From assembly GCF_947492555.1 (NCBI RefSeq), contig NZ_CANLNE010000002.1, positions 797,501 through 861,500 of the forward strand: a stretch of 64,000 bases of DNA. The letters are read 5' to 3'. The notes under the pieces were generated by a model. The model did no database searches and was not told the origin of the DNA. It worked only from the letters and a program-made list of their open reading frames with translations. Each line of letters starts with the position of its first letter. Position 1 is the first letter of the stretch. Made by a program: the position numbers and the translations under genes. This document shows, in pieces, positions 1 to 17,934 of this stretch. Source of the stretch: an uncultured Roseobacter sp. (GTDB lineage: Bacteria; Pseudomonadota; Alphaproteobacteria; Rhodobacterales; Rhodobacteraceae).

Positions 1-1
1 G

Positions 2-625
2 GTCTCTTACGGTCCGATCCCGGCGGATGGTGTGGCGAACATGGCGTTCGAGGCGCGGATGCTGGAGCTCTGCGAGGCAATCTACCGGCTGGACGAACAA
101 CAGGCGCGCTATTCGAACGATGCGCCCTCTGCCAATACGGCGCGTATCCGATCCGCGGCACGCGGCATGTTGGGCAACCTGTCCCGTGCGGGTGGTGGCA
201 TTACGCCCTTTATGGCTACAGAACTCATGGCGGCGCTCAAGGAAGCGCTTGCGATCCTCAAACACCCCCATTTGCGCGGCCTCTTTGCGGCGCGCGACGT
301 CTGGGATGTGATCGCTGGTATTCGCAGGCGCGCGCGGATGACAGGGGGCGATCCGCGCATGTTCGTGGATCGGGGTCGTGCTGGCATGACGATTATTGTC
401 TGGCTGGCCGATGCTGCAGAAAGGTTGCGGCAATATGGTCAACCGATTGTCGGGCGCGGCGATCCGGTCATCCCGGCCGCGGTGGAGTGGTTGCAGGCCT
501 CGCTGACGATCAGCGAGTTGCATGCGCGGACCCAGGCACCTGCACCGCCACCGCCCGGACAAGGGGGGCTCTGGGGTCAGGGGAACACCTCGCCGGCGTC
601 GGATTGGGCCGACCTGGGGGTGTGA
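2..625 (+). CDS. Hypothetical protein, left end open (partial)
   Basis: I do not recognise this protein. The frame is open to the left edge of the window, and neither the GTG at 32 nor the ATG at 41 has a good Shine-Dalgarno, so the gene probably begins upstream. The visible part is about 207 residues: a predicted mostly helical, alanine-rich body and a proline/glycine-rich C-terminal tail (APAPPPPGQGG near the end). No membrane segment or signal peptide is visible. It ends four bases before the next gene, so the two are very likely co-transcribed and functionally linked. They lead towards a sigma-54 gene. Confidence 0.55.
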   Translation, partial: VSYGPIPADGVANMAFEARMLELCEAIYRLDEQQARYSNDAPSANTARIRSAARGMLGNLSRAGGGITPFMATELMAALKEALAILKHPHLRGLFAARDVWDVIAGIRRRARMTGGDPRMFVDRGRAGMTIIVWLADAAERLRQYGQPIVGRGDPVIPAAVEWLQASLTISELHARTQAPAPPPPGQGGLWGQGNTSPASDWADLGV

Positions 626-629
626 CGCC

Positions 630-2090
630 ATGACCGCGGTCGCCGCCATCCACGCAGCGCCGAACCGGCCCCGCAATGATGTGCGCCACGGTGTCCGCGC
701 CCTGCTGACCGCTGCCGAAGGGTTTGACACGCTCGATCCCCAGACCCGTCAGGATGTGGCCAAATCGCTTGTGCGTATTTCCTCAACGGCGCTGACACTG
801 GCCGAGGAGGCGGGATCCGATCCGCCCTCGCCGATTCCCCGCAAACGCCGCGCGCCCTTGGCAGAGGGACAGTCCGCCGGGCGCGCCTATTCCGGCACCG
901 CCATCGACCAGATCGCCCCCCAGACGGAGCGCATTCTGAATGCGGTGTCCTTCCCGCGTTTCGTCGGTGAGCTGATCACCGGCGTGTTCAAGGCGATGAA
1001 TGAATCGAACGAACAGCAGTTGGAAAGCTATGTGGAGCTGATCCGCAACGTAGCTGCGAGTACAGATGGTTTTGCCGACGCGAATATCGGAGATATGGGC
1101 GCGCGCCAGTGGTTGATGGAACGGTTCCCCGGCACGTTTCGCATTGAGGGCGACAGCGATGAAGGGTTTGACAACCCCGAGGAGATGAGCGCTGACGAAC
1201 GGGCCGAATGGATGGCCGAGCGGGCGGCGAACCAGCGGCTTGAACTCAGTCCCGGCGCCGAGATGCCGTCCGAGGATGCGTTGCGCACGGCGTTGGGCGC
1301 GCCGCGCGGGTCATCGCTGCCGTCGGGCAACCCGGAGGCACTGGTCGGTCCGGTGCGGGCGCTTTTGGCGCGCAACAAACAGCAGATGCTGGCGACCATG
1401 GTAATGATGGGTATGCAGCGCATCGTGATCGATTCCGGGCGACTCAACGCCTCGATGCGGTTCCATATCGACGCCTCCAGTGCCGCCTCTGATGACCGCG
1501 GCTCCCGTTTTGATGTCCGCAACGAATTGCAGGCGGGTGTAAAGGCGCAGTTCGGGCCGTGGGGCGCGTCCGCGAAGATGAAAAACACCATCGGCTATGT
1601 CTCGACCGAGCGCACGCAGACCGAAGAGGAGGTCAATGCGGACCTCGAGCTCGACAGTGCGGTCGAGCTGATTTTCCGCACCGACTACGTGCCACTAGAG
1701 CGGTTGGCAGGCACCGGCGATGTGAACCGCATTCGGGTGAACGCGCTGAATCCCACCGAAGAGCGCCGTTTTGCCGAGGAACGCAGAACGGCCCGAGAAA
1801 CGCGGCGCACCAGCCAACGCAACCAACGCAGCCAAGACCTGAACCAAGGCCTGCAACCGACGCAGTTTACGCAGGGTGGTGAAGAGTTGGAGGTGCCGGA
1901 TCCAACTGGAACTGAGGAAGAAGGGGCAAGCGAAGAAGCCGCCAACGTTGAAGAAACCGGCGGCGAGCAAGCCGACGAAGGTGGCGGCGGCGAAGAATCT
2001 TCCAACGAGGGCGAGGGTGGCGGCGACGCTGAGCCCACGGAGGAGGGCACCACTGAGGAAGGTGGTGAGACCGCCGAGGAAGCCGCGTGA
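630..2090 (+). CDS. Hypothetical protein with acidic low-complexity tail
   Basis: This protein has 486 residues and no family I can name with confidence. ATG at 630 is chosen because it lies four bases after the preceding stop; the frame is open further upstream but only over the neighbouring gene. Three parts are visible. The N-terminal third is helical. A central segment (about 250-390) contains a hydrophobic stretch AMTV-like (MLATMVMMGMQRIVI) followed by an alternating, beta-rich part with NTIGYVSTERTQTEEE. The last ~75 residues are almost only Glu, Gly, Thr and Ala. The domain order resembles small apparatus or tail-associated proteins, but that is only an impression. A sigma-54 gene follows 61 bases downstream on the same strand. 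Confidence 0.6.
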   Translation: MTAVAAIHAAPNRPRNDVRHGVRALLTAAEGFDTLDPQTRQDVAKSLVRISSTALTLAEEAGSDPPSPIPRKRRAPLAEGQSAGRAYSGTAIDQIAPQTERILNAVSFPRFVGELITGVFKAMNESNEQQLESYVELIRNVAASTDGFADANIGDMGARQWLMERFPGTFRIEGDSDEGFDNPEEMSADERAEWMAERAANQRLELSPGAEMPSEDALRTALGAPRGSSLPSGNPEALVGPVRALLARNKQQMLATMVMMGMQRIVIDSGRLNASMRFHIDASSAASDDRGSRFDVRNELQAGVKAQFGPWGASAKMKNTIGYVSTERTQTEEEVNADLELDSAVELIFRTDYVPLERLAGTGDVNRIRVNALNPTEERRFAEERRTARETRRTSQRNQRSQDLNQGLQPTQFTQGGEELEVPDPTGTEEEGASEEAANVEETGGEQADEGGGGEESSNEGEGGGDAEPTEEGTTEEGGETAEEAA

Positions 2091-2151
2091 CTTGCCCCTC
2101 GACCCAAACGAATTGCCGTCCTAGACTGGAGCGGTCCGCAAGAGGACGATC

Positions 2152-3408
2152 ATGATGCAACCAGACCTTCGCCTTGTGCCCAAACCAGCGCTCCATGTCA
2201 GTGCGCGGTTGTGCGGCATGGTCGGATTGTTGCGCATGAACAACGACGAGTTGACCCGCCATGTCGCTGACATGGCTACGCGCAATCCGCTGCTCGACCT
2301 TGCGCCGGGCAGGCAGGGCGGGGGTGATGCATATGAAGCGCCGGTTGTTGCCGCCGAGGCCAGTCTCTATGCACATGTCCTGAGCCAGATCAGCGTGGCA
2401 TTCGATGACCCGTTGCAGATGCGCATTGCGCAGGCCTTTGTTGAGGCGCTTGAACCCAGCGGCTGGTTGGGCCAGCCGGTGGCATCCATTGCTGAACACG
2501 CGGACGTGACCGTGCCGCAGGCGGAGGCCGTTCTGGCGCGTCTGCAGGACTTTGAACCAACCGGGTTGTTCGCCCGTGATCTTGCGGATTGTCTGCGCCT
2601 GCAACTGATCGACCGGGGGGATTGGGATGACGCGGCTGCGATTGTTGTCGCGCATTTGGGCATCATGCTCGAGGGTGGGGCCGACGCCTTGGCCGATGCC
2701 ACGGATCTTGCGCCGGGCGTCGTCGCCGACACGCTGGCCGCGATCCGAGCGTGTGATCCCAAACCTGGCGCTGCGTTTCAACACGAAGATCCCAGCCTGG
2801 GCCGACGCCCGGATATCATCGTGCGCAAGGAGGCGGGCGGCTGGCAGATCGAGCTGGATCGGTCGACAATGCCGAGTGTCAATCTGGCAAATACTGGCAA
2901 TGCAGTTGACCCGAAGCTCGCCAAGCTGCGCCGTGATGCACGTTGGCTGGTCAACGCGGTGCGCCTGCGCAATCAGATGACGCTCGATGTAGCGCGGGTC
3001 GTGATCGGTCACCAGGTGGGATTTCTTGAACGCGGCGTGCGTGGGCTGAAACCGCTGCGACGCTGCGACGTGGCTGATCGACTGGGCGTGCATGAAAGCA
3101 CAGTGGGCCGGGTTGCCACGGGATTGCTGGTGCAGACACCTGTCCAGATGCTTGAACTGACACGGTTCTTTTCCCGTGCGCTTGGGCGTAAACGTGGGCC
3201 GACGGCATCGCGCCGCAAGCTGAAGACGCTATTGCGCGATTTGATTGCCGCTGAAGATCCAGACAACCCTCTGACCGATCAAATGCTGGCTAAAACGCTT
3301 TCCGAAGGCGCGGCCATGGTGTCACGCAGGACTGTGGCAAAGTATCGGCAGGCTCTTGGCATTCCAGGATCACCAATGCGCATACATATCGGCGCAAGTT
3401 CAATCTGA
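2152..3408 (+). CDS. rpoN: RNA polymerase sigma-54 factor (RpoN), short divergent copy
   Basis: Sigma-54 directs RNA polymerase to -24/-12 promoters and needs an AAA+ activator. The C-terminus carries the RpoN box (SRRTVAKYR, residues 391-399) that reads the -24 element. An HTH of the DNA-binding domain lies around 300-325 (DVADRLGVHESTVGRV). Region I is recognisable from RNPLLDL (44-50), but it is poor in the glutamines that normally fill it, and the acidic region II is almost missing. At 418 residues it is clearly shorter than the usual 470-500. ATG at 2152 follows AAGAGGA. This is probably a specialised paralogue rather than the housekeeping copy. It lies directly downstream of two unknown genes, which are plausible partners. 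Confidence 0.85.
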   Translation: MMQPDLRLVPKPALHVSARLCGMVGLLRMNNDELTRHVADMATRNPLLDLAPGRQGGGDAYEAPVVAAEASLYAHVLSQISVAFDDPLQMRIAQAFVEALEPSGWLGQPVASIAEHADVTVPQAEAVLARLQDFEPTGLFARDLADCLRLQLIDRGDWDDAAAIVVAHLGIMLEGGADALADATDLAPGVVADTLAAIRACDPKPGAAFQHEDPSLGRRPDIIVRKEAGGWQIELDRSTMPSVNLANTGNAVDPKLAKLRRDARWLVNAVRLRNQMTLDVARVVIGHQVGFLERGVRGLKPLRRCDVADRLGVHESTVGRVATGLLVQTPVQMLELTRFFSRALGRKRGPTASRRKLKTLLRDLIAAEDPDNPLTDQMLAKTLSEGAAMVSRRTVAKYRQALGIPGSPMRIHIGASSI

Positions 3409-3430
3409 CACCGATACGCTCAGGCAATGA

Positions 3431-5965
3431 CTAGTCCAGCAGCCTGAAAAGCTGATCCTGAAGCTCGCGGTTTGACACCGGTTTGGTCAACAGAGGTACG
3501 TCTTTGAGCGTGTCGGGGAGGGCGGCACTCTTCCCATAACCCGTTACAAAAAAGAACGGCAATCTCATTTCATGCAGTTTCATTGCAACGTCGATGCTGT
3601 CCTTGTCTTTGCCCAGGTTGACGTCCAGAATGGCCAGCGCGACGGCTTCCATGTCCAGAAAGTTGAGTGCATCCGCTGAATTTGCAAAAATTTCTACCTC
3701 GGCAAAACCGAACTCTCGCATTTGATCGCTCATTTCTTTGGCGATGAGGTAGTTGTCTTCCAGCAACAGAACGGTGCCGGACAATGCCTCGCCGGAAAAA
3801 CTGTCTGCATCCGCGACATCGGAATCAGCAGCGTTTTCAGTGTCGGGTGAGGCTGCGGTATCGTCGAAATGCTGATCAGGCAGGGTGAATACCGCTTTTA
3901 CACCGGCCGGTTCAAACACTAGCTGAGTTGTCCCGCCAAGCTCATGAGGCACGGCATGCTCAATCATTGCTGTACCAAAACCCGTGTCGGCGGGTTTGCT
4001 TGCCGGTGGCCCACCGCGTTCCTGCCAGGTGACCTGCATCGCGCCGGGCAGACGCTCCAGGGTAATGCTCACCTCTCCCTTCTGGGTGCTCAGCGCGCCG
4101 TGTTTGACAGCATTGGTCGCCAGCTCATGCACGACCAGCGAGAATATTGGAGCGATCTGGACCAGCAGGTTTCGGTCTGGTCCTTCGAGGTGAAGTCGGG
4201 CGCCTGCAATTTCCTTGTACGGATCGAATTCCCGTTTGATCAGGCTTTTGATCGATACTGGGCCTGTCAGCGAGCGCGCGTTCAACTCGTGCGATGCGGC
4301 AAGGGCGCGGATGCGGCTTTCGACTGCGTCGGCGTAGCCATCGATCGAGTTGTATCGCCTGCGCGACTGACGCGAGACGGAGCGTACCAGCGCGAGGATA
4401 TTGCGCACCCGGTGGTTCAGCTCGTCGATCATCAAGGATTGTTGTTGGTTCATCTTGTTCATCAGGGTCTGGCGTTCAGACGCATGCAACAGTGTTCGAA
4501 CATGCCCGATGAAGTACTTGTCGTCTTCTGACCAGGCTTTGCTGCGGCCTCCGACGTTTTCGATATAGACGGAAAACGATCCACGGGGGGACAGACGAAG
4601 CTTTCCGTCAATTTCGGTGATGGGTTTGTCCGGCTTGCCCGCCCAAGCTACCTCCTGTGCGACTTCCCGGCGAAAGATGCAGATCGCGCTATCTGGCAGA
4701 ATGCTGGCGAGCAGGGCGCCGGCACAGCCATTCGTCGCTTCCCCCAGGTCGGGAAAAGCATCCCCCAGGTTATCAATTGCAATCACGGTCCCGGTTTGCT
4801 CGCCTGCGTGGCGCTGAAGCCGCCGTAGCAACTCCGGTTGGGGTGATACGCCGAAAGAGTAATCTGTGCCGCCGCTGATGGCTGCGATCCCGTCAGCACC
4901 GATCACCTCCATCACCAGTGGGGCAATCTCGGGCAGCAGTTTTTCCATGCGGAAATCCTGTGTGTGGTTGCTTACGATGCTCTCTTCGAGCCTTCTGATG
5001 CGACCAAGCGTTTCATCGTTCCGAATGGCCAGAAGTTTTGCCGAAAACACGGGCACAAAGCTCTTCAACACCTCGCGGAGCATTGCCGGGGGCACTTTTC
5101 GGGTGCGGTTATGTAGTGAAATGATGCCCCACAGGCGATCCTCAACAACAACGTTCAGGGTCATTGTCGCCTGACTGCCGAGGTTGGCCAAATACTCCAT
5201 GTGAACGGGCGACACGCCGCGACAGGCCGCGAGAGTGATGTCCAGTGGAGGCAAATCCTCGTGGGCGGCAACCAGAGGAATCGGCACCTGTTCAACGTCT
5301 TCAATGACCCTGACGGGTACTTTTTTCATTATCGCGCGCGCCTGCTCGGGAATATCCCAATGCGGAAAGCGCAACCCCTGAAAGGTCGGCATAGAGGGCC
5401 TGCACGTCTCGGTGATAACCTCACCGTTAAACTCATGGTCGAATTGGTAGATCATGACACGATCGTACCCTGTGAAATGCCGCATGAGATCAACGGTCAG
5501 CTGCAACAATTCCTGTCTTTCCTCGCATCCGTGAATCTGCGTCATGAGGAAGTTCATGGACCGGAATGCTTCGGCTCCACTCAGAATGTCGGTGTGCGCC
5601 TGTTCGAATTCCACAACGTGAAATCCCCCGCTTTCAAAGGCGCTGATGGCGCAGAGTGTGCCGTTCAGTTCGTGGTTGAAAACCGAAAGATTTTCTCTCG
5701 AAAACTCAGTGCGTGAGGCGGCGTTTTGCAAATCGTGCCAGATTTCAGAGCCCAAAACCTCTTTGGCCGACGTACCAAGCAGGTCGCGCAGAGGCCTCCC
5801 CAGTGCATCAGAGCAGTTTTCGCTCGCATAGCAAATCAGACTGCTTTTGGGATCATAGGCGAGAAGATGTCCGAAGGGTTGTACAATACCGGGAATGTGC
5901 ACGGGCTCTGTGGCGCAGTTGTCGAGTGCTTGCTGCAATTCCGCCTCAGTCAAACGCCGATTCAT
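3431..5965 (-). CDS. bphP: Bacteriophytochrome HWE-type histidine kinase with C-terminal receiver
   Basis: Red/far-red photoreceptor kinase of 844 residues. The domain order is PAS (1-120), GAF (135-310), PHY (320-495), HWE/HisKA_2 kinase (500-700) and receiver (730-844). Cys17 lies in the motif CATEPVHIPG and is the expected biliverdin attachment residue. GAF residues expected around the chromophore are present: PHWDIP (201-206), His255 and His285. The PHY tongue shows WAG (441-443) and PRGSF (460-464). The phosphoacceptor is His518 in ELNHRVRN, the N-box is HELATNAVKHG, and WQE (647-649) marks the HWE group. Receiver phospho-acceptor is Asp781, with Lys828. The usual PASDIP motif is altered to PHWDIP. 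No heme oxygenase gene is nearby. It is divergent from a single-domain regulator. Confidence 0.93.
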   Translation of the reverse strand: MNRRLTEAELQQALDNCATEPVHIPGIVQPFGHLLAYDPKSSLICYASENCSDALGRPLRDLLGTSAKEVLGSEIWHDLQNAASRTEFSRENLSVFNHELNGTLCAISAFESGGFHVVEFEQAHTDILSGAEAFRSMNFLMTQIHGCEERQELLQLTVDLMRHFTGYDRVMIYQFDHEFNGEVITETCRPSMPTFQGLRFPHWDIPEQARAIMKKVPVRVIEDVEQVPIPLVAAHEDLPPLDITLAACRGVSPVHMEYLANLGSQATMTLNVVVEDRLWGIISLHNRTRKVPPAMLREVLKSFVPVFSAKLLAIRNDETLGRIRRLEESIVSNHTQDFRMEKLLPEIAPLVMEVIGADGIAAISGGTDYSFGVSPQPELLRRLQRHAGEQTGTVIAIDNLGDAFPDLGEATNGCAGALLASILPDSAICIFRREVAQEVAWAGKPDKPITEIDGKLRLSPRGSFSVYIENVGGRSKAWSEDDKYFIGHVRTLLHASERQTLMNKMNQQQSLMIDELNHRVRNILALVRSVSRQSRRRYNSIDGYADAVESRIRALAASHELNARSLTGPVSIKSLIKREFDPYKEIAGARLHLEGPDRNLLVQIAPIFSLVVHELATNAVKHGALSTQKGEVSITLERLPGAMQVTWQERGGPPASKPADTGFGTAMIEHAVPHELGGTTQLVFEPAGVKAVFTLPDQHFDDTAASPDTENAADSDVADADSFSGEALSGTVLLLEDNYLIAKEMSDQMREFGFAEVEIFANSADALNFLDMEAVALAILDVNLGKDKDSIDVAMKLHEMRLPFFFVTGYGKSAALPDTLKDVPLLTKPVSNRELQDQLFRLLD

Positions 5966-6070
5966 TTGTTTTCCCTGCTTGGCTAACGCGTTGCGTGTAC
6001 ATACACAAATCTCCCATAAGTTACGGGCGGTTATGTCTCGAACGGTCCAATATTGCTCTTCCCACTTGTT

Positions 6071-6097
6071 CTAGCGTAGTGCATAAATACACGCTAG
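6071..6097. promoter_or_regulatory. Inverted repeat in the phytochrome/response-regulator intergenic region
   Basis: CTAGCGT at 6071-6077 and its exact reverse complement ACGCTAG at 6091-6097 are separated by 13 bases, giving a centre-to-centre distance of 20 bp, or two helical turns. It lies in the 165-bp divergent region about 30 bases before the response-regulator start. A second, smaller repeat, GTGTA-CA-TACAC, is at 5995-6006 near the phytochrome start. Both are candidate operators; the binding protein is unknown. Confidence 0.4.
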
Positions 6098-6130
6098 GGG
6101 CGAAAAATCAGCCAGCCAATGGAGGGAAAA

Positions 6131-6526
6131 TTGGCACGAATTCTTCTGATGGAAGATGACCTGGCGCTAAGCTTTCAGTTGTCGCAGAACCTGAAAGAGG
6201 CAGGTCACCATGTTCAGACCTGCAGTACGGCCTCCGCCGCACAGGAGGAGCTTTGGCGCGCAGAGTTCGATCTGCTGATTACCGACGTCATTGTGAAGGT
6301 GGATGGTCGATCTGTGCCTGACGGCGGTATTGGGTTGATTTCGTGGGTTCGGCGGACAGAGAAATGTCGCACCATTCCAATCATTGCGATTACTGGTACC
6401 GCCAAGTTTCCCGGTATGGAACACATCCTGTCGACCACCCGTCAGGTCGGCGCAGATGTCGGTATCGAGAAGCCGGTTGACGTTGACCATATCCTTGAAG
6501 AAATTGACTTTCTAACATCCGGATGA
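6131..6526 (+). CDS. Single-domain response regulator
   Basis: A stand-alone CheY-like receiver of about 131 residues with no output domain. The acidic pocket EDD is near residues 8-10, the phospho-acceptor is Asp52 (LITDVIVK), the switch threonine is in AITGT and the conserved lysine is in IEKPVD. About ten residues are inserted after the phospho-acceptor. The TTG at 6131 is preferred because GGAGGG lies five bases before it and gives the typical MARILLMEDD beginning. An in-frame ATG at 6119 overlaps that ribosome site and has none of its own. Its position divergent from the phytochrome suggests that it receives phosphate from that kinase, as seen for other HWE kinase pairs; this is inferred. 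Confidence 0.85.
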   Translation: MARILLMEDDLALSFQLSQNLKEAGHHVQTCSTASAAQEELWRAEFDLLITDVIVKVDGRSVPDGGIGLISWVRRTEKCRTIPIIAITGTAKFPGMEHILSTTRQVGADVGIEKPVDVDHILEEIDFLTSG

Positions 6527-6699
6527 TGGGAAGTGCGAGGCACTTAGCTGTGTCTGCTTACGACCAACTTGCGGCTGATTGCTGATTTGTACGCCTCATT
6601 TTTTATGTCTCGCAGATACGATCCATTTAGACCTTTTTGATTTTCACGGATAATCTTGGGTAGAAAGACACAAACAACGCGTTCCGGAAAGGAATGGGC

Positions 6700-8187
6700 A
6701 TGAAGACATTTGGAAGGCGCGCCCTTTTGCTGGGAACCGGCGCTGCGGTAGGCGCTTTGGCCACCCGTTACCTGCATCCGAACCTGACGCCGATCACCGA
6801 TAGCCTCTTGACCGACATGCCGTCCTCGGACCTGATGCTGAACGACGCCAGTGAGTTGAGCGCGACACCAGTTTACCGTCACATCACGATGACAGAAGAC
6901 CCGACCAACGCCCTGGTTGACCGTCTGCGCGCTGAAATGGCCGAGGCCAAAAGCGGGGGGCGAGCGATCAATATTGGTGCCGCGCGGCATTCCATGGGCG
7001 GGCAGGCCATTCCAACGGGTGGTCACGCAGTTACATTCGACAACGGAATGGTCGACCTCGACAGCGCGGCAAAAACCTACCGTGTCCATGCCGGGGCGCG
7101 CTGGTCGCAGGTGATCGCAGCACTCGATCCCATGGGGTTTTCGCCGCAGGTGATGCAGTCCAACCATGACTTTGGCGTTGCGGCGACCTTTTGCGTGAAT
7201 GCTCATGGCTGGGCGGTGCCCTTTGGCCCGATGGGGGCTACCGTGCGGAGCATTGATCTGCTTTTGCCGGATGGTGACCTGGTGCGCTGTTCCCGGCAGG
7301 AAAACCCGGAGCTTTTTGCCATGAGCATGGGGGGCTATGGGCTCACCGGTGCCATCGTTGCAATGGAGGTGGCGGCGGAGCCGAACCTCAGGCTTGAACC
7401 GTCATTTGAACGCATGCCCGCAGAGACATTTGGCGAGGTCTTCGCTCAGGTGGTCAACGATCCGCAGGTGAACATGGCCTATGGCAGGTTGAACGTGGAT
7501 CACGGCACCTTTTTCGAAGAGGCATTTCTGGTCACCTATAGCCCCTCCGCCGATCAATCCGATCTACCGGCCGCTGCCGGTTCCGGCGCGGTGTCTCATC
7601 TGGCCAGCCGCGTTTATCGCGCGCAATTGGGCAGTGAACCGGGCAAAGCCCTGCGATGGGCCTTTGAAACAAAACTCGGGCCGATGGTCGGCGGCGGGCC
7701 AACCACGCGCAACTCCCTGATCAATGAGCCGGTGGTCACGCTGGATGATCGCAATCCCCACCGTGTCGACATTCTGCACGAATACTTCGTGGCCCCTGAA
7801 CGGTTCCCGGAGTTCCTGCAGGCCTGCCGCGACATCATCCCGGCCTCCTACCAGGAGTTTCTCAATGTCACGTTGCGCTTCGTGGATCGCGATCCCGAAA
7901 GCTGGCTCAGTTACGCGACCGTGCCCCGCATTGCGGCGGTGATGTCCTTCAGTCAGGAGAAAACAGCCCGCGGAGAAGCCGACATGCAGCGGATGACCCG
8001 GGCCCTTGTCGGGGCGATCACCGAAATCGGCGGCAGTTACTATTTGCCCTACCGTCCGCATCCGACCCTGGCGCAATTTCAAAACGCCTACCCGCGTGCC
8101 GTGGAGTTCGCGACGGCAAAACGCGTGCTGGATCCGGGCGGGCTCTATCGCAGCGCGTTCTGGGACACTTATCTGGAGCCGCTATGA
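6700..8187 (+). CDS. FAD-linked oxidase, Tat-signal-like N-terminus
   Basis: A 495-residue flavoprotein of the FAD-binding type 4 (PCMH) superfamily, similar in plan to aldonolactone oxidases and DprE1. The start resembles a Tat signal (FGRRALLLGTGAAVGALA), so export to the periplasm is likely. The flavin-binding part includes IGAARHSMGGQ (His a candidate for covalent FAD), HAGARWSQV, the stretch QSNHDFGVAATFCVNAHGW and MGGYGLTGAI. The C-terminal part contains LDPGGLYRSAFW, typical of this family. ATG at 6700 is chosen because AAAGGA ends six bases before it; the ATG at 6694 touches that site. It overlaps the next gene by four bases and heads a four-gene block. The substrate cannot be told. 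Confidence 0.85.
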   Translation: MKTFGRRALLLGTGAAVGALATRYLHPNLTPITDSLLTDMPSSDLMLNDASELSATPVYRHITMTEDPTNALVDRLRAEMAEAKSGGRAINIGAARHSMGGQAIPTGGHAVTFDNGMVDLDSAAKTYRVHAGARWSQVIAALDPMGFSPQVMQSNHDFGVAATFCVNAHGWAVPFGPMGATVRSIDLLLPDGDLVRCSRQENPELFAMSMGGYGLTGAIVAMEVAAEPNLRLEPSFERMPAETFGEVFAQVVNDPQVNMAYGRLNVDHGTFFEEAFLVTYSPSADQSDLPAAAGSGAVSHLASRVYRAQLGSEPGKALRWAFETKLGPMVGGGPTTRNSLINEPVVTLDDRNPHRVDILHEYFVAPERFPEFLQACRDIIPASYQEFLNVTLRFVDRDPESWLSYATVPRIAAVMSFSQEKTARGEADMQRMTRALVGAITEIGGSYYLPYRPHPTLAQFQNAYPRAVEFATAKRVLDPGGLYRSAFWDTYLEPL

Positions 8188-8588
8188 GCCTTCTGCAAAA
8201 GATCTGCCTTGTCTATGTCGCCGTGCTGCTGGCCGCGGCCTCGCTCAACTACATCCCCGGGCTGACGGACGCGGAAGGGCTGGCCTTTGGTATCTTTGCG
8301 CTCGATATCTTCGACGACGCCCTGCATGTCGCCTCCGCGCTCTGGGCGCTTTTTGCAGCGCTCTGGTCCAAACAATCCGCTAAGTTTTTTCTCATCGTGT
8401 TCGGCGCGCTCTACCTGGGTGATGGCGTCTTCGGGTTCTTCACCGGCTATGGCTATCTTGATCTGGGCATCTTCACCAACGCTTCTGCTGGACTGTCATT
8501 CACCTTCCTGCGGCTTGCAGCGAACGTTCCGCACTTGCTGTTGGGTGGGGTCGCGCTTTGGGCCGGTCTGAAACTGGATCGCGCGTGA
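8184..8588 (+). CDS. Small integral membrane protein, unknown
   Basis: 134 residues with about four predicted membrane helices (near 5-22, 48-62, 67-85 and 108-128). No catalytic motif is visible and I do not recognise a family, though the plan is like DUF4383-type membrane proteins. Its start overlaps the stop of the FAD oxidase (ATGA), and its own stop overlaps the GTG start of the next gene. Tight translational coupling suggests that it works with the oxidase, perhaps as a membrane anchor or electron-transfer partner. That role is inference only. Confidence 0.7.
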   Translation: MSLLQKICLVYVAVLLAAASLNYIPGLTDAEGLAFGIFALDIFDDALHVASALWALFAALWSKQSAKFFLIVFGALYLGDGVFGFFTGYGYLDLGIFTNASAGLSFTFLRLAANVPHLLLGGVALWAGLKLDRA

Positions 8589-9631
8589 TATCCCTGTTGT
8601 GGCGCATCATCCGAGGCGCGATCCTTCTTTTGCTGCTGCTTGTCGTTGTGTTGCTGATTCCGGTTGCCCATAACGAGATTGCCTGCCGGGGCGAAAGCAT
8701 TCCCAATGACTACACCGCGATCTTGCCAGCAGAGCATCACCGCCCCGAGAGCCGCACGTATCTGACCTATCCCGAATGGCATATCGTGCATGCCTACGAC
8801 GACTACGCGCAGGTCATCGCAACCGGTGATCCACATGATTTTGGATTTCTGCAGGGTATTCACGGGTTCTGGGCCTCGCTGTGCGATCTGTCCAAGATTT
8901 CAGGTCAGCATGGCGGATTTCCCTGGGAGACCAAACAAATGGTCTATGTGATCGGCATCAGTTTCACAGTGGAATTGATGTTCAAGGCCGCCTATGAGGA
9001 GACCGTTGGGCGCGCCGTGGTTTGGTTTCGTGGGCCGACACGCGCTCCGCTGGACGATCTTTCCGCACAACAGGCGCGCGGATATGCGACCTTTCTGCAG
9101 CAGGTGCCGTGGTACCGGTGGGACTTTCTCTCCGATGCCGCGGCCTTGGAGGCCGCCGCCGCGACAGGTTTGCGGGACCGTGAACGGCAAATAGCCCTTG
9201 GTCTGGAGTATCGGACGAAGGCAGCCTATGCCGGGGCTATCAGCGCTGCAGTCGAGAATGTCGGCGCCGATGCGTTAACCTTGCGTATGATCGTGACAGG
9301 CTATGCTGGGGCCGCGCCGGAAGGTGTCACCGTGGTTGCGCAACGCGATGAAGGCACGGAACTTGAAACGCCGCGGTATCGCGTGCTGACTGAACTGATG
9401 CTGAGCATGGCGCAGGACGGTACGGATTTTGTGGAGATTGCAGGAAATGATGACATCATGCTGACGGTTCTTGCCGATACTGCCCAATTTGAAGGTGCCC
9501 GCAGTTCTATGCGCCGGCAGGGGTACGGCGACTATCGGCATCTGGTCGGGCTCAAGGTGCGTGATCTTGGAGATCGGCTTCGTGCCTTTCTGGCGACGGG
9601 CGTGACCGTGGAGCACATCCATGACTATTAA
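8585..9631 (+). CDS. Membrane-anchored protein of unknown function
   Basis: 348 residues. An N-terminal hydrophobic helix (about 10-30, rich in Leu/Val) anchors a large soluble domain, probably periplasmic. The part TYPEWHIVHAYDDYAQ, near residue 60, is the most family-like stretch, followed by a possible second hydrophobic segment around MVYVIGISFTVELMF. I do not recognise a named family. GTG at 8585 overlaps the previous stop (GTGA); an ATG at 8558 is possible but lies inside the previous gene. Part of the FAD oxidase block by overlap on both sides. Confidence 0.7.
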   Translation: MISLLWRIIRGAILLLLLLVVVLLIPVAHNEIACRGESIPNDYTAILPAEHHRPESRTYLTYPEWHIVHAYDDYAQVIATGDPHDFGFLQGIHGFWASLCDLSKISGQHGGFPWETKQMVYVIGISFTVELMFKAAYEETVGRAVVWFRGPTRAPLDDLSAQQARGYATFLQQVPWYRWDFLSDAAALEAAAATGLRDRERQIALGLEYRTKAAYAGAISAAVENVGADALTLRMIVTGYAGAAPEGVTVVAQRDEGTELETPRYRVLTELMLSMAQDGTDFVEIAGNDDIMLTVLADTAQFEGARSSMRRQGYGDYRHLVGLKVRDLGDRLRAFLATGVTVEHIHDY

Positions 9632-9902
9632 ATGGCTGATGGGATTGGGTGTTCTTGGTACCGGTTGGCTTGCGCTTCTGGCCTCGGTGATGCTGCTGTC
9701 GAGCGACGCGCCTGCGGCGTTGGTCCCGCTTGCGACAGCAGATTTTATCGATGCGTTGCCGGACCATATTTCGATTACAGACACCACGGCGCTTGGCACG
9801 GTGCTTGTGAGCGACGATGCGGATTTTGTCGCCCAACTCTACCGGGCGGGGGCTGTTGTCGTGCTGCCGGCGGGGTTGATGGGCTGTGCCCCGCTAACCT
9901 GA
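9621..9902 (+). CDS. Short membrane or secreted protein, unknown
   Basis: 93 residues with an N-terminal hydrophobic segment (about 5-27) that could be a signal or anchor, then a short domain with alternating hydrophobic residues (SDDADFVAQLYRAGAVVVLPAG). It ends in MGCAPLT. The gene overlaps the preceding one by 11 bases and closes the four-gene block. No recognised family. The 76 bases after it, before the convergent LytTR gene, contain nothing I can name. Confidence 0.6.
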   Translation: MTIKWLMGLGVLGTGWLALLASVMLLSSDAPAALVPLATADFIDALPDHISITDTTALGTVLVSDDADFVAQLYRAGAVVVLPAGLMGCAPLT

Positions 9903-9978
9903 TCCAGAAGAGTTGCGCGAGACGCGCAAAACACCCGCATTTGGGGCGGCCTCCGAAACACCAACCCAGAAGGTCACT

Positions 9979-10758
9979 CTACGTATCAGCTTTTTGCGCT
10001 GACAGCACCGCGCGTACCTCTTTGCGGAAGGCTCGTCCGACGGGCACAGTTTCCCCGCTTTTCAGGAACAGTTTTCCGGCCCCACCGGAATGGGTCAATC
10101 GGTCCATCTGGTCCTGCGCAACCCACCAGGATCGGTGCACACGCAGGCCATATCCTCTCAAGGCGGCATCAGCTTCTGACAGGGAACCCCGGATCAGGGC
10201 TTCGCCCAAGCGCGTGCGGGCCAGAACATAGTGATCCTGTGCCCGCAGCCACAAAATCTCTCGGCCAACTTCCGGCGGCAGTTTGTTCAGCCAGTTCTGT
10301 CCCGCATCGGTCACTTCGGTCTTGTGACGCGCCGCAGTCCCAAAGCCCTCGTAAATCAAACCGACGATCACAGCGACGAATGATGCGTAAGGCGTGAGCA
10401 TCCGGACTGACGACAAAAAAGGTTCGGCAAAAAATGCTACATCCAGCGCCGCGACAAACAGGGCGATTGGAACGCCCGCAATCATGCCTCCCAAGACGAC
10501 TGACACCCGCGGGGACAGGTCCCAATCCTCTGCGTGGCTGGCACACGTCATCGATGTCAAAAAGCCCAGCCAGAAACTCCCCAGGCTGACCAGGCTCCAA
10601 TAAACGATGCGTACGCCCAGAACCAAACTGTTGAATGTGCCGAAGGGCCCGGTGGCAAAGACCAGTGCCGTTATCGCCAGAAAGATGAGCCAAAACCGTG
10701 AACTGGCCGCAAGCACGCGCGCTTCGGCCAGCGCAAAGGCAAATGGGGTGTCGTTCAC
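9979..10758 (-). CDS. Membrane-bound LytTR-family transcriptional regulator
   Basis: An N-terminal half with about four membrane helices is fused to a C-terminal LytTR DNA-binding domain (PPEVGREILWLRAQDHYVLART ... LRVHRSWWVAQD). This is the architecture of membrane-tethered LytTR regulators that respond to an envelope signal without a separate kinase. The frame is open to 10836, but that start has no ribosome site and would leave only 15 bases to the divergent hydrolase. The GTG at 10758, preceded by AGGT, gives a natural N-terminus (VNDTPFAF) and about 260 residues. Target genes are unknown; the divergent serine hydrolase is the obvious candidate. Confidence 0.8.
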   Translation of the reverse strand: MNDTPFAFALAEARVLAASSRFWLIFLAITALVFATGPFGTFNSLVLGVRIVYWSLVSLGSFWLGFLTSMTCASHAEDWDLSPRVSVVLGGMIAGVPIALFVAALDVAFFAEPFLSSVRMLTPYASFVAVIVGLIYEGFGTAARHKTEVTDAGQNWLNKLPPEVGREILWLRAQDHYVLARTRLGEALIRGSLSEADAALRGYGLRVHRSWWVAQDQMDRLTHSGGAGKLFLKSGETVPVGRAFRKEVRAVLSAQKADT

Positions 10759-10851
10759 GAATAAATACCTGACGTTGGCGACACGGTGCTTCAGCCCTGC
10801 ACAATGTCGGGCTAGCACACCGGCAATTGTGACCATACGAGGACATCTTTG

Positions 10852-12063
10852 ATGAGGATTGCAAGCCGTCTTATGCGCATCGCCTTGGGAATTCTGATCT
10901 TGCTGGTCTTGGCAGGGGGCGGTGGCTTTCTATGGCTCTGGACCTCGCCATATTGGGCGGGCATCACGCTTTTCTCTGACGGTAAGCGGGTCGAGAATTT
11001 CCGAACCATGGAACGGGTTTTCCCCTATCGCGATGTTGCGGCTAGCGGGTCGGTTTGGGCGTTTACGTCCGACCCCCGCCCGTTACCGCAAACTTATAGG
11101 TACAATGGTGAGCTCCGCGACACCGCGACGTTCCTCGACGAGACTCAAACGACCGGACTGATTGTGGTTCATGACGGCGTAATCAGCCATGAGGAATACC
11201 GGCTGGGCGCGACTGGGACTTCACGTTTCACCTCTTGGTCTATGGCGAAATCGGTTTTGTCCGCACTGGTCGGCATAGCCCTCAAGGAGGGGCATATCGG
11301 CAGTCTGGCCGACCGCATCGACCAATACGTGCCTGAACTGGTGGGGTCGGGATATGATGGTGTCACGATTGAAGACGCGCTCACCATGTCTTCCGGCGTG
11401 TCCTTCGATGAAGATTATGGCAATCCGTTTTCGGACGTGAACATGCTGTTTTTCAAGCTCGCTGCGGGTGCCGACATGCGGGACACGCTGGTGACTTTGG
11501 TCAATGACAGACCGACCGGCACCTATAACAACTACGTCAGCTCAGACAGCATCGCGATTGGTCTGATGCTGGAGGCAGCAACAGGTATGCCGTTGGATAG
11601 ATATCTGGAGGCGCGCCTCTGGACGCCTATGGGCGCCGAAAGCGATGCGTTCTGGAGCACCGGGCGCGCGGGTGCCGTTCTGCCGTTTTGCTGTCTGAAT
11701 GCGCGATTGCGCGACTACGCGCGTTTTGGCCGCCTCTACCTGATGTCCGGCAGGCGCGGCTCTCATCAGATCGTACCCAGCGACTGGGTCACCTACTCAA
11801 CGCGACCAATCGGGCCGCATCTTGAGCCGGGCGAAAACCCGGCATCTTCCTGGACCTTTGGGTATGGGTATCACTGGTGGATCCCCGAGGCGCCTGAAGA
11901 TGAATTTCTCGCGATTGGGATTTGGGGGCAGTACATCTATGTTGATCGTTTTCGGCGGATCGTGATCATAAAATCCAGCGCCGATCCTGATTTTGACACC
12001 CGTGATCATGAGACTGTCGCTGTTTTCCGAGCGATCTCAAAGAGCATCGCTGATGGTCGATAG
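10852..12063 (+). CDS. Serine hydrolase of the beta-lactamase/NylB-like family
   Basis: 403 residues. An N-terminal hydrophobic helix (about 8-30) is followed by a penicillin-binding-fold hydrolase domain. The catalytic SxxK motif is SMAK (Ser130, Lys133), and a YxN-type motif follows in TYNNYVSS. The family includes class C beta-lactamases, esterases and 6-aminohexanoate-oligomer hydrolases; the SMAK form points to the last group rather than to true beta-lactamases. ATG at 10852 has AGGA eight bases before it. It is divergent from the LytTR regulator, with roughly 93 bases between the two starts for promoters. Substrate unknown. Confidence 0.85.
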   Translation: MRIASRLMRIALGILILLVLAGGGGFLWLWTSPYWAGITLFSDGKRVENFRTMERVFPYRDVAASGSVWAFTSDPRPLPQTYRYNGELRDTATFLDETQTTGLIVVHDGVISHEEYRLGATGTSRFTSWSMAKSVLSALVGIALKEGHIGSLADRIDQYVPELVGSGYDGVTIEDALTMSSGVSFDEDYGNPFSDVNMLFFKLAAGADMRDTLVTLVNDRPTGTYNNYVSSDSIAIGLMLEAATGMPLDRYLEARLWTPMGAESDAFWSTGRAGAVLPFCCLNARLRDYARFGRLYLMSGRRGSHQIVPSDWVTYSTRPIGPHLEPGENPASSWTFGYGYHWWIPEAPEDEFLAIGIWGQYIYVDRFRRIVIIKSSADPDFDTRDHETVAVFRAISKSIADGR

Positions 12064-12152
12064 CCTTGGCCGGATGGAGTTATATTCCATCTTACATGGC
12101 TTCCCATGGTCTGCTGACCTTGTGTCTTGCAAGAAGCCGCAACGTAACAGAG

Positions 12153-12455
12153 TCACGCGCCGAGGTGTTCCGCTTCACGGTCAATAGACCACTCGATCAA
12201 GCCGCGCCAAATGCTCTCTACAAGGACCGGATCCAAGCCCTGTGCGCGGGCGCGGGTTGCGACATTGCTTACGACTTCTTCAACCCGGTCCGTGATGCGT
12301 GCGGGCAAGCCCTCTGCTTCTTTGAGGACGACAGCGCGATCAATGTACCGGCTGCGCTCCGCAAGAAGATCAATCAGATCGGCATCAATAGCATCTATTT
12401 CAACGCGAAGATCCTGCATCTTTTCGCAGAGATGTGGCGGTTTTCGGATGGTCAT
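12153..12455 (-). CDS. Chorismate mutase, AroQ type
   Basis: A 100-residue, all-helical AroQ-class domain that converts chorismate to prephenate. Visible family marks are LRVEIDAIDADLIDLLAERSRYI at the first long helix (in two short runs), an alkaline switch to AVVLKEAEG, then RITDRVEEVV and VESIWRGLIEWSI. The related PchB isochorismate-pyruvate lyases share this fold, and the sequence alone does not separate the two. ATG at 12455 has GAAGGA before it; the reading frame is open further upstream but that part does not look coding. It stands alone, with no aromatic amino acid genes beside it. Confidence 0.85.
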   Translation of the reverse strand: MTIRKPPHLCEKMQDLRVEIDAIDADLIDLLAERSRYIDRAVVLKEAEGLPARITDRVEEVVSNVATRARAQGLDPVLVESIWRGLIEWSIDREAEHLGA

Positions 12456-12843
12456 CGCGCTTCCTTCTTTGTGATTTTGAGGTCTGACGTGCTCGCCCAT
12501 CGGCGGTTTTCGCTTTCGTCCGTCAGATATATTTGTACCTCCCGAAATCACAAGACGGCACTGTGCGGCCTCTTGTCCCTTGGCCCCTGATATGAAGTGG
12601 AGTTGAGATGGCTCTGGCCGCGGGTCATCTGAATGCTTTTCGAAAAGGTTGTCGTACTCACTGGGAATGCAGCCCCAAAGAAGGAGGCGTGGATACGATC
12701 TCGCGCAGAAGTCGACGCACAACAATCGCAAAATCCTTGTTTGAGGTGATGCAACCGTGCGACCTGAGAGACAAACAGTTTCGCGTCTTTCAATGATGGT
12801 ACCGCGCAACGGGTGCACGGTACATGATTTGGTTTGGTTGTGT
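12456..12843. other. 388-bp non-coding gap
   Basis: No convincing gene is found here. Short open frames have no ribosome sites and no recognisable protein. One hairpin is visible at 12799-12823 (GTACCGCGC pairing with GCACGGTAC, one G-U), placed about 20 bases after the chemoreceptor stop. It has no following T-run on the minus strand, so it is only a weak candidate for transcript end processing. Confidence 0.5.
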
Positions 12844-15264
12844 TCAGTTCACTGCCGCTTGCGCATGCGTTTCGGCGCCAGCACCTGTTTTGAAGCACCC
12901 GCTGGTTTCGATAAGCGCGTCGGTTCTCACCTTGAGCGCGGCGGTCGATGCGGCAGTTTCCTCGAACATCGCAGCATTTTGCTGGGTGACGCCATCCAAT
13001 TCATTCATTGCGCCACTCACCTGTGTGAGGGCCGCCGTTTGCTCAACCGTCGCATTGGCAACGGAATGCATGGCTTCGTTCAGACCTTCAATAAAGTCGG
13101 AAATCCTGGAAATCGCATCGCCGGTTTCATCCACCTGCTTGGCGCCTTTGGTTACCTGTATTTCACTTGTTTCGATCAGGGTGTTGATCTCGCTTGCAGC
13201 GGTTGCCGCGCGCTGCGCCAGTGCGCGGACCTCCGAAGCGACGACACTGAAGCCACGTCCACTTTCGCCGGCTCTGGCCGCTTCAACACCGGCGTTGAGT
13301 GCAAGCAGGTTGGTTTGAAACGAGATATCGTCGATCAGTGAGGTGACCTTCGAGATTTCTTTGGAGGCGTGCACAATGGCAGCCATTGATGCCACGGCCC
13401 GCTTCACGACATCCCCGGTCTTGTTGGCGATATCCAACGCTTCATTGGTCAGATCTCGTGCTTCGCCGGCCTGCGCCGAAACAGAGTCGACCGATGCCGA
13501 CAGTTCCGCCACCGCGCTGGACGATTCCTGCAAAGACGCCGCCTGCGACTCGGTGCGTTTGGCCAAGGATTGGGTGGCATTGGCTATCGCATCCGTATCA
13601 GCATCGATCGCTTGCGCGTTTTCAAGCACAGCATCTACCAGTTTCGCGATCTGCATCAGCGAAGCATTGAACGATTTTTGCAAATCGAGGAACGCGCCTT
13701 TGAAATCACCGTCCATACGCGCGCTCAGGTCGCCGTCATGCATCTTGCCCGTGACCCTGAAGATCGCTTCAAGGCCTGTCTCCACGGTCTCTAGTAAGTC
13801 ATCTACATGGCGTCCGACCAGAGCAAGATCCTTATGTTTGGATGACATGGACACACGTGTCGAGAAATCTCCATTACCTGCAGCCTGCGATACCTGACCG
13901 ATCCGCTCCTGCAAGGCATCCTGCTCTTTCTGCCGTTGCGCTGCTTCTGCTGCGGCACGCTCGCGCTCCTCATGGAGTGCCTTTTGCTCGGCGAGCATTC
14001 TCATTTGCTCTTCTGCCATGGCGCGATGCTCTTCTGCAGCCTTTTCGGCCGCTTCCGTCAGTTCAAGATTTCGGATCAGCGAGGATCGAAAGGCGCTGGC
14101 CGCTTCGGCGATAGAGCCAATTTCTGTTTCTCCTGCCAGGTCGCTGAAGGTCACGGCGGTGTTGCCCTGCGACAATGCCGAGATACGTTCAGAAAGATCT
14201 TTTGCCGGTGCAACGGCAGAGGTTTTGAGTATGCGCCCGATTCCGAGCGCTAAGCCAGCGCAGATCAATGCGGTTGCCGATGCAATGACCATCCCGATGT
14301 ATTTCGAGGAACGTATGTCGTTATCCAGGTCCCTGGTTTGTTCGTAGAGGCTCACGTCGATTGTCGAATCAAGCTGTGCAAGCGCCTCCAGGGCCGGGCC
14401 GTCCGACACCTTGACGAGCGCGTCGATCTCCAATGCTGAAAGACCTTCCGCCACCGCTCTTCGGGCTTGCTCCAAGCCTTGTTCGTATTCTGAAACAACT
14501 TCTCTCAAGGCGTCGAGTGCTGCGATCTCGGTGGCATTGTTGGATAGGGATGCGTAGAGTTCGATATCAAGCTTTGCACGCTCCAGTGATGCCGTGATTT
14601 TTTCGACGCGCGGGGCGTCCTTGCGCAACACGTAGTTCTTGAAATGGTGGATCATGCCGCCATAGCCAAGTGCGCTTCGCAGGTCGCTCAACAGTCCGGA
14701 TTTGCTCTTGCTTCCTTCTTCCGCAGAGAGGCCTGTGGCCTCCACATACGCAAGCTGTTGAACGGCGGCGATGGCGGCAAGAGCGTCGAGTGCTGGGGAA
14801 TCGTCAATCTTGACGACGGCATCAATGTCCTCCGGCGTAGCCCCTGCCTCCACCATGGCTTTGACGTCTTTGGATTTTGCCAGATAGGCGGCAACGACGG
14901 CGGTGATGTTCTCTGCGTGTACCTTGTTTTCGGGGCTGGTTCTGGCCAGCCGCTCCAGCGCAATTGTCGCAGCATGGGCGTCATCAGAGATATCGTCGAA
15001 ATGCCGTTCCGTGCCTCTGAGGACATAGTTCTTGAAGGAGTGGATCAAACCGCCGTAACCGACCGACGTAATGACCTCGCCCAACTCAATGCCAACCGGG
15101 TCGGCAGAATGCGACAGGATGCCTGCATCGCGTTCGGATTCCATCAAAAGATAGACGATGACGGCAGCACAGGCCGTCAACAGCAAGCCCGCAGATGTCA
15201 GTGCCGCGACGATCATGCGAAAAAGAGTATCAAGCGAGGTATTTTTGAGTGATTCCGGTAACAT
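12844..15264 (-). CDS. Methyl-accepting chemotaxis protein with duplicated sensor module
   Basis: 806-residue chemoreceptor. Membrane helices are at about 15-40 and 322-345, enclosing a periplasmic sensor. That sensor is an internal duplication: [15 protein letters not shown] (69-83) and [15 protein letters not shown] (200-214), each followed about 75-80 residues later by a similar IDAxVK..D.PALxAL segment. Next come a HAMP-like region, a second HAMP/coiled-coil stretch and the signalling domain, with the conserved hairpin [20 protein letters not shown] and [12 protein letters not shown]. It lacks an obvious C-terminal CheR-binding pentapeptide. No other chemotaxis genes are nearby, so it is an orphan receptor. 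The ligand is unknown. Confidence 0.93.
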
Positions 15265-15596
15265 GTCGGCCTCCTAACGAGTGGTCGGTCCCGATCTGTA
15301 TGCCTTGGGATACCCTAACAACCGGTTAGCTTTGAGGCAAAATCTGCACTTTTTTGCATACTCGGAAAAACCTCAAAGATCAGAATGTGTTGCGTGGCAG
15401 AACCGGTGAAACTGGTGGCCCGAATGCCTTCCCTCTTGGCATGAAGCGGGGTGTTGGGGTAGTCTGTTCTAGCCGACTGAGGGCGGCACCCAGGTCCGCG
15501 GAAAGCCGTCATCGGCGCCCTTTCATATCGCTTAGAACACTTTGGTGTTTCTCATGCCCGATCCAGCGGACCGAAGGGCAGGATATGAGGAAACCC
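15265..15596. other. 332-bp divergent intergenic region
   Basis: This holds the promoters of the chemoreceptor (minus) and the ankyrin protein (plus). The chemoreceptor ATG is preceded by GGAGG. The open frame running through the region in phase with the ankyrin gene reads as non-protein-like. I see no RNA gene, and only a weak CTAAC/GTTAG repeat near 15317-15331. Confidence 0.4.
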
Positions 15597-17138: not shown

Positions 17139-17156
17139 TCCTCAGAAAGGCCCTGA

Positions 17157-17924: not shown

Positions 17925-17934
17925 GGGGTCTCCT

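What the first reader, a model, noticed from the sequence alone, without database searches (positions are those of the whole stretch)
2..3408. Two unknown genes lead into a truncated, specialised sigma-54
Two unrecognised proteins, one ending in ~75 residues of Glu/Gly/Thr, are followed by a 418-residue RpoN whose region I lacks most glutamines and whose acidic region II is nearly absent, while the RpoN box is intact. A dedicated sigma-54 next to unknown genes suggests a self-regulated apparatus, possibly continuing to the left of the window. Seen: sequences and order. Inferred: shared function.
Basis: partly seen in the sequence, partly recalled or inferred. Interest (0 to 1): 0.6.

Follow-up and report, generated by a model that had tools for sequence, protein, structure and literature searches.

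The report
Gene cluster carrying its own sigma-54
In a Roseobacter-group bacterium, a rare cluster of mostly undescribed protein genes appears to carry its own on-switch: an activator, a matching promoter, and the genome's only sigma-54, the RNA-polymerase subunit that reads it.

Summary
The two unknown genes and rpoN are the right end of a ~19-kb unit running 15.9 kb further left: a sensor-less sigma-54 activator (EBP); a consensus -24/-12 promoter below TGTGACA repeats; DUF3467; a 1,596-aa protein with a C70 protease domain; four paralogues of a new family (the finding's second protein is one); a Trypco2-like protein; a subtilase; two related proteins (the finding's first is one); a 343-aa protein; rpoN last. 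It is the genome's only full RpoN, and the EBP its only GAFTGA activator. Three Roseobacter-group genomes and a Ruegeria keep EBP-to-rpoN order, one RpoN each. A Burkholderia plasmid has the cargo and EBP without adjacent rpoN; another Rhodobacteraceae genus has a SARP-type regulator; cyanobacterial plasmids keep a reduced core.

So 'dedicated sigma-54, self-regulated, continues left' holds at sequence level; 'truncated, specialised' does not. Cargo function is inference; I favour a soluble, effector-armed apparatus. Dedicated RpoN/EBP pairs are known in Cereibacter sphaeroides; the cargo's own families matched nothing over cut-off in the libraries searched.

The parts
2..625 (+). 3' part of the 344-aa gene p344 (whole gene G000:C2:797091-798125); related to p583 upstream
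630..2090 (+). parD, 486 aa, one of four paralogues of a new family (parA, parB, parC lie left of the window)
   Evidence: nothing over cut-off in Pfam/NCBIfam/PHROGs/PADLOC
1863..2087 (+). Glu/Gly/Thr-rich C-terminal tail of parD (75 residues)
2152..3408 (+). rpoN (sigma-54), last gene of the unit and the only full RpoN of the genome
2191..2301 (+). RpoN region I (residues 14-50), weak PF00309 match
3325..3348 (+). RpoN box RRTVAKYR (residues 392-399)
3431..5965 (-). right flank, not part of the unit: phytochrome-like sensor kinase (name from sequence, recalled); next to rpoN in two other genomes of the genus, not matched around the Ruegeria copy

Best explanation
The finding is the right end of a self-contained sigma-54 regulon. 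SHOWN BY SEQUENCE: an EBP of the sensor-less, PspF-like layout (AAA+ with GAFTGA plus Fis-type HTH) is followed by TGTGACA/TGTCACA repeats, a consensus -24/-12 site (TGGCACG-N4-TTGCA) and a tightly packed run of genes: DUF3467 - 1,596-aa multidomain protein (C70 protease) - parA - p275 - S8 subtilase - p583 - p343 - parB - parC - p344 - parD - rpoN. INFERRED: the EBP binds the repeats and activates RpoN-polymerase at that one promoter. Since rpoN is the last gene of the run, firing would raise RpoN and give positive feedback (an on/off switch). With no sensor domain, the EBP would be controlled by its own amount or by an anti-activator not identified. INFERRED, weaker (about 0.4): the cargo is a soluble, cytoplasmically made multi-subunit apparatus (four par paralogues plus p583/p344 as structural parts, the S8 protease as maturase) that carries exchangeable hydrolase effectors (C70 protease here; PG amidase + C92 + C70 in Burkholderia; trypsin-like in G228) towards a target outside the cell. 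The confidence below is for the regulatory statement.
For: One RpoN over cut-off in the genome. Ten PF00158 stretches lie in eight proteins and only the cluster EBP has GAFTGA; four EBP-like response regulators lack it and three are ClpA/ClpB/MoxR-type. The promoter has the maximum score (17.2) of my matrix, next best 13.7 in 27.5 kb; the same place scores 16.1, 17.2, 17.2 in L009, L010 (Ruegeria), L011. 3 of the 7 TGTGACA/TGTCACA heptamers of 83.5 kb lie in the 191 bp above it, and the repeats align across species. Same order EBP to RpoN in L009, L010, L011. Island RpoNs form one clade, 100/99. Each of the four island genomes has one full RpoN, the island's. All 13 genes tested show purifying selection against L009 and L011, dN/dS 0-0.18.
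Against: Genome-wide, exact TGGCAYRN4TTGCW occurs 3 times against 4 for the reversed control, so the sequence alone is not significant; position and conservation carry the case. The matrix is recalled, not fitted, and other sites reach 15.0 in L010 and L011. In Burkholderia the site is weaker (14.6, not the best in its locus), that EBP reads GAFTSA, and no rpoN is adjacent, so the sigma is not an obligate part of the cargo. Co-transcription of rpoN is inferred from a 61-bp gap with no terminator-like site in it; a separate rpoN promoter is not excluded. Mobility is not shown: the Roseobacter and Ruegeria copies both lie near nasT/nasS. Neither AlphaFold model was usable (mean pLDDT 55 and 31), so the apparatus idea has no structural support.
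Confidence: 0.74

Rival explanations
1. Cargo is an intracellular conflict (defence) system: proteases and effectors are held inactive and unleashed on infection, like the Trypco2/trypsin systems of Kaur et al. 2020.
For: p275 has a weak Trypco2 match, below cut-off (E 0.02; Burkholderia member 0.0098). A trypsin-like protein sits in the G228 cluster, a cyclase and a patatin follow the Burkholderia cluster, an alpha/beta hydrolase precedes the Tolypothrix S8 gene. PMC7159879 (passages) pairs Trypco1/2 with trypsin, caspase with alpha/beta hydrolase, and lists cNMP cyclases. No signal peptides seen.
Against: No vWA, MoxR or STAND NTPase among the cargo proteins. PADLOC, given 9 cargo proteins, rings only on S8 (subtilase, IetS) and a Cas3d at E 0.09 on p343. 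A PG amidase and a PG-binding domain in relatives point outside the cytoplasm.
Confidence: 0.27
2. Cargo matures a peptide or small-molecule product: subtilase as leader peptidase (PatA/mycosin-like) and p343 as an ABBA-fold prenyltransferase.
For: S8 matches PatA and mycosin models below cut-off. The Burkholderia p343 has a PF11991 Trp_DMAT hit at E 0.059; the very poor p343 model shows repeated strand-strand-helix units and ranks a DMATS structure 19th at E 1.6.
Against: All p343 hints are below significance; 1 of 4 members hit PF11991. No precursor peptide, YcaO or export gene was noticed, though I did not search for them specifically. Four large par paralogues are unexplained.
Confidence: 0.12
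3. rpoN here is an ordinary general sigma-54 that merely neighbours this operon.
For: It is the only RpoN in the genome; a small regulon elsewhere could be missed by an exact pattern.
Against: No other GAFTGA activator among the PF00158 matches; 11 of 19 genomes of the genus have no full RpoN; order conserved to Ruegeria.
Confidence: 0.1

Closest known systems
Cereibacter (Rhodobacter) sphaeroides RpoN1/NifA, RpoN2/FleQ, RpoN3/AprX pairs
   Same: An RpoN devoted to one gene set with a cognate EBP (PMC11999139, passages)
   Different: There four RpoNs coexist; here one RpoN, one EBP and one cargo sit together in genomes with no other full RpoN, and rpoN ends the operon
PspF / HrpS-type sensor-less EBPs (recalled)
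   Same: AAA+ with GAFTGA plus Fis HTH, no regulatory domain found
   Different: Anti-activator, if any, unknown
VMAP/Trypco ternary conflict systems (Kaur et al. 2020, PMC7159879, passages)
   Same: Weak Trypco2 match; trypsin, cyclase, alpha/beta hydrolase in or beside related clusters
   Different: No vWA, MoxR or STAND NTPase among the cargo; new par and p583 families instead
Contractile injection systems (T6SS, eCIS, tailocin)
   Same: Many-subunit soluble cargo, hydrolases as possible payload; sigma-54 EBPs control some T6SS (recalled)
   Different: No sheath, tube, baseplate or VgrG match in the cargo (Pfam; PHROGs)

Membership tests
RpoN (sigma-54) | core-binding and DNA-binding domains, RpoN box, equivalog score | tested here: met
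   PF04963 131.6, PF04552 142 bits; TIGR02395 291.6 >= 277.35
RpoN (sigma-54) | activator-interacting region I | tested here: inconclusive
   PF00309 20.2 bits, cut-off 23.8; present but degenerate
Bacterial enhancer-binding protein | PF00158 AAA+ with Walker A and GAFTGA, Fis HTH | tested here: met
   222.4 bits; HTH_8 48.1 bits; GAFTGA
Peptidase C70 (AvrRpt2-like fold) | domain match over cut-off | tested here: met
   PF12385 85.7 bits, cut-off 19. Fold family only, no claim on target
S8 subtilase | domain match and Asp/His/Ser motifs | tested here: met
   PF00082 137.9 bits; motifs DSG, GHG, GTSFA in the sequence
T7SS mycosin | equivalog cut-off; ESX neighbours | tested here: not met
   165.9 < 278.75 bits; no ESX-type family in the Pfam scans of the cluster
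VMAP/Trypco conflict system | vWA + MoxR (or other NTPase) core | tested here: not met
   absent from cargo proteins
Trypsin-co-occurring domain 2 (p275) | PF19631 over cut-off | tested here: not met
   15.6 bits (Burkholderia 16.6), cut-off 24.2; hence 'Trypco2-like' only
Contractile injection system | sheath/tube/baseplate genes | tested here: not met
   none in Pfam or PHROGs (9 proteins) scans of the cargo
ABBA prenyltransferase (p343) | fold or family match | tested here: inconclusive
   E 0.059 in 1 of 4 members; model pLDDT 31
sigma-54-dependent promoter | in vivo dependence on RpoN and EBP | not testable with these tools
   sequence match and conservation only

The most novel reading that the evidence does not exclude
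A new class of protein machine: a core of subtilase, p583/p344, par and Trypco2-like p275, found so far in alpha- and betaproteobacteria and, reduced, on cyanobacterial plasmids. It has swappable hydrolase payloads and plug-in control modules (EBP + sigma-54, EBP alone, SARP). In roseobacters it comes with its own sigma-54, wired as a self-amplifying switch, in genomes that have no other.
Probability: 0.28. Interest if true: 0.82.

Novelty: new variant of a known kind. Interest (0 to 1): 0.62.

Why it matters
Sigma-54 is usually seen as a resident global factor; here it looks like part of the cargo, kept with the one operon, activator and promoter that need it. In the genus, each of the 8 full RpoNs sits near such a cluster: this one in 3 genomes, a di-iron monooxygenase cluster in 4, contractile-tail genes in 1. 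That makes testable how a sigma factor is kept and stays orthogonal. The cargo is itself an undescribed set of new protein families.

Tried and rejected
AlphaFold2: parD (13 sequences) mean pLDDT 55; p343 (3 sequences) mean pLDDT 31. Foldseek against PDB gave no match at E<=0.001 for either; such models cannot be read as folds, and I use rank 19 (a DMATS) only as a hint.

PDB profile searches with A4, A5, A7: nothing credible. Viral contigs: no relatives with A4 or A5. Phage records: none with p343. PF11991 in 398 phylum genomes: nothing rang anywhere, controls included, so uninformative.

The weak second PF04552 hit (C2:823873-823989) lies in an ORF at window 25425-26492, minus strand, that reads as a LacI-type regulator (recalled from sequence), not a second RpoN. 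In the genus rpoN count I dropped six hits of 21-25 bits, which match only a short helix-turn-helix stretch.

'Truncated sigma-54' rejected. PMC4843759 (outline and passages) is on rpoH and was not used. Paper searches whose listings showed no description of this cluster; the new families have no names to search by, and the library is open-access papers only.
Full report
WHAT IS THERE. The window is G000:C2:797501-861500 of a 4.44-Mb genome, 99.99% complete. L003 is C2:778001-797800, so window position = L003 position - 19500. Left of the finding, all on the + strand: EBP L003:3626-4579 (an ATG lies 15 bases inside); promoter 4771-4786; DUF3467 4818-5192 (PF11950, 51.5 bits, cut-off 25); 1,596-aa protein 5189-9979 (Peptidase_C70 at residues 945-1065; DUF3238 at 841-912); parA 9992-11083; p275 11325-12152; S8 subtilase 12149-13597; p583 13654-15405; p343 15427-16458; parB 16476-17855; parC 17865-19094; p344 L003:19091 to window 625; parD 630-2090; rpoN 2152-3408. 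Gaps between genes are -4 to 61 bp, except 241 bp between parA and p275 and 238 bp between EBP and DUF3467, where the promoter lies. No terminator-like site falls between parD and rpoN (2 sites in 4 kb, shuffles mean 3.9).

NEW FAMILIES. parA-C are 24-31% identical to parD; the four have no cysteine. p344 matches residues 281-496 of p583 (27%). par and p583/p344 of this genome hit nothing near a cut-off in Pfam, NCBIfam, PHROGs or PADLOC; the cyanobacterial par has a Fil_haemagg_2 hit of 17.6 bits, cut-off 22. Hydropathy maxima over 19 residues are at most 1.59 in 12 cluster proteins and 0.64 in DUF3467. I take that as no clear TM segment, though 1.59 (the 1,596-aa protein and S8) is borderline; signal peptides were judged by eye only.

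THE REGULATORY CIRCUIT. One full RpoN in the genome. PF00158 rings in 10 stretches of 8 proteins; only the cluster EBP has GAFTGA. NtrC-, NtrX- and two DctD-like regulators lack it, and the rest are ClpA, ClpB and MoxR types (names from sequence, recalled). The intergenic site TGGCACGTTTCTTGCA has the maximum score of my recalled matrix (17.2; next 13.7 in 27.5 kb) and is kept at the same place in L009 (16.1), L011 (17.2) and Ruegeria L010 (17.2); L010 and L011 each have another site at 15.0. A weaker one (14.6; best elsewhere in that locus 14.9) lies between EBP and DUF3467 of Burkholderia. By my own arithmetic with equal base frequencies, a match to TGGCAYRN4TTGCW on the + strand of the 238-bp gap has a chance near 1e-4. 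Genome-wide, the exact pattern has 3 hits against 4 for the reversed control, so sequence alone would prove nothing. Above it lie TGTGACA/TGTCACA repeats (reverse complements of each other): 3 of 7 such heptamers in 83.5 kb are in those 191 bp; L009 has three there, L011 two, Ruegeria four, Burkholderia one, and the block aligns across species.

DISTRIBUTION. p583 was found in 2 of 248 family genomes (own and, at 28% identity, G228), in 3 of 19 of the genus and, in the GTDB scan, at 3 loci: Uncultured Roseobacter 269 (L009), Roseobacter MH60115 (L011), Ruegeria Ofav3-42 (L010). The par profile rang in 1 of 398 phylum genomes and the p343 profile in 1 of 289 class genomes, own only. Among 72,556 plasmid records, p583, parB and p343 match only B. 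pyrrocinia pBPJTT; a divergent par query also reached Tolypothrix PCC 7712, PCC 7601 and Microchaete NIES-3275, whose par proteins are identical, so they count as one lineage.

VARIANTS. Burkholderia: EBP - DUF3467 - amidase/C92/C70 protein - parA - 87-aa - p275 - S8 - p583 - p343 - parB - parC - p344 - parD, then a cyclase and a patatin; no rpoN follows. Its plasmid has an RpoN about 145 kb away; the chromosomes were not examined. G228 (read in gene direction): BTAD/SARP regulator - 741-aa - par - p275-like - S8 - p583-like - p343-like - par - p344-like - par - par - 961-aa trypsin-like; neither the EBP nor the RpoN query matches in this 19-kb stretch. The 741-aa protein shares the N-terminus of the 1,596-aa one (23.1 bits) and the 961-aa protein shares profile positions 304-493 (57.8 bits). 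Tolypothrix: S8 (291.8 bits), a PG-binding protein, p583-like (68.5), par (136.8), p275-like (99.1) with a TIG match of 19.8 bits, cut-off 20.9; p343 not detected. The scores come from a set of 47 proteins; in the whole plasmid collection the Tolypothrix p583-like, par and p275-like proteins reach the Burkholderia cluster at E 2e-15, 2e-5 and 5e-6. So the cargo core is S8 + p583/p344 + par + p275, and payloads and regulators vary; S8 proteases are common (390 plasmid records match), so S8 alone says little.

LOCATION AND SELECTION. In this genome and two others of the genus the unit lies beside nasT/nasS on the left (inferred from like spacing for G255 and G258) and, on the right, the phytochrome-like kinase. 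In Ruegeria the immediate neighbours differ, but nasT/nasS lies 6.6 kb from rpoN, that is on the other side, the unit being inverted relative to it, with a transposase-like gene (recalled from sequence) between. In 5 genomes of the genus without the unit, nasT/nasS is present and none of the right-flank proteins matches within the 18-19-kb stretch. So the region upstream of nasT is variable, which fits an insertion hotspot or inheritance with inversion and loss; I found no clean empty site. Against MH60115, identity falls from p344 98% to parD 91%, RpoN 83% and flank kinase 79%. All 13 genes show purifying selection (dN/dS 0-0.18 against L009 and L011; Ruegeria comparisons are near saturation at silent sites); RpoN has the highest ratio of the 13 in both (0.18, 0.15).

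RPON IN THE FAMILY. 45 of 149 family genomes have a PF04552 match over cut-off, a few of them weak or partial. In the genus 8 of 19 have a full one (>=115 bits): 3 in this unit; 4 with the alpha-subunit gene of a di-iron monooxygenase 0.7-4.0 kb away (L026, L027, L029, L030); 1 beside phage-sheath and baseplate genes (L028/L048). In L029, L030 and G251 an EBP-like gene lies on the far side of the cargo (GAFTGA, GAFTGA, GAFTDA), so EBP - cargo - rpoN recurs with other cargo. The four island RpoNs form a clade (100/99, 38 rows). Short region II is usual: 23 of 34 non-island rows.

HOW IT MOST LIKELY WORKS. Signal (unknown) -> EBP rises or is freed -> binds TGTGACA repeats -> ATP-driven opening at the -24/-12 site by RpoN-polymerase -> operon including rpoN -> more RpoN. 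A basal source of RpoN is needed and not identified. For the cargo I favour an effector-armed soluble apparatus (0.4) over an intracellular conflict system (0.27), because PG amidase and PG-binding domains occur in relatives. Lack of signal peptides fits either.

LIMITS. No expression data; neither structure job gave a usable model; other phyla could be searched only through plasmid records and one exact-pattern scan of GTDB.

Noticed in passing
L026, L027, L029, L030 (G257, G261, G254, G265): Full RpoN gene 0.7-4.0 kb from the alpha-subunit gene of a di-iron (propane/phenol-type) monooxygenase in 4 genomes of the genus, with a GAFTGA EBP beyond the cargo in L029 and L030.
   Followed up: partly
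L028:8845-10239, L028:11542-13218, L048:4140-5747, L048:14683-16110: G251's RpoN sits beside phage-sheath and baseplate-J genes, and an EBP-like gene (GAFTDA) lies at the far end: a contractile-tail-like cluster bracketed by rpoN and EBP.
   Followed up: partly
L026:2626-4563: Activator-like protein (GAF + AAA) near the monooxygenase has no PF00158 match at E<=1e-5 and no GAFTGA.
   Followed up: no
window 1-5965 against L011: Identity to MH60115 drops stepwise 98-91-83-79% from p344 to the flank kinase, suggesting recombination.
   Followed up: no
L112, L113 (Ruegeria, G908) and L003:1487-3285: The unit lies near nasT/nasS in both genera but in opposite orientation.
   Followed up: partly
L109:17209-18375 (-), Paraburkholderia PGU19 plasmid: A p583/p344-family protein (tblastn E 4e-9 over the plasmid collection) among proteins with Glu-Gly-Glu-Trp-type repeats and one with an HEVSH motif: another setting for the family.
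   Followed up: partly
L025:18080-18991: The G228 variant is headed by a BTAD/SARP-type regulator, so the cargo's control module differs.
   Followed up: no
window 25425-26492 (-): LacI-type regulator (from sequence) whose helix-turn-helix gives a weak Sigma54_DBD hit; similar weak hits recur in the genus; not a second RpoN.
   Followed up: yes
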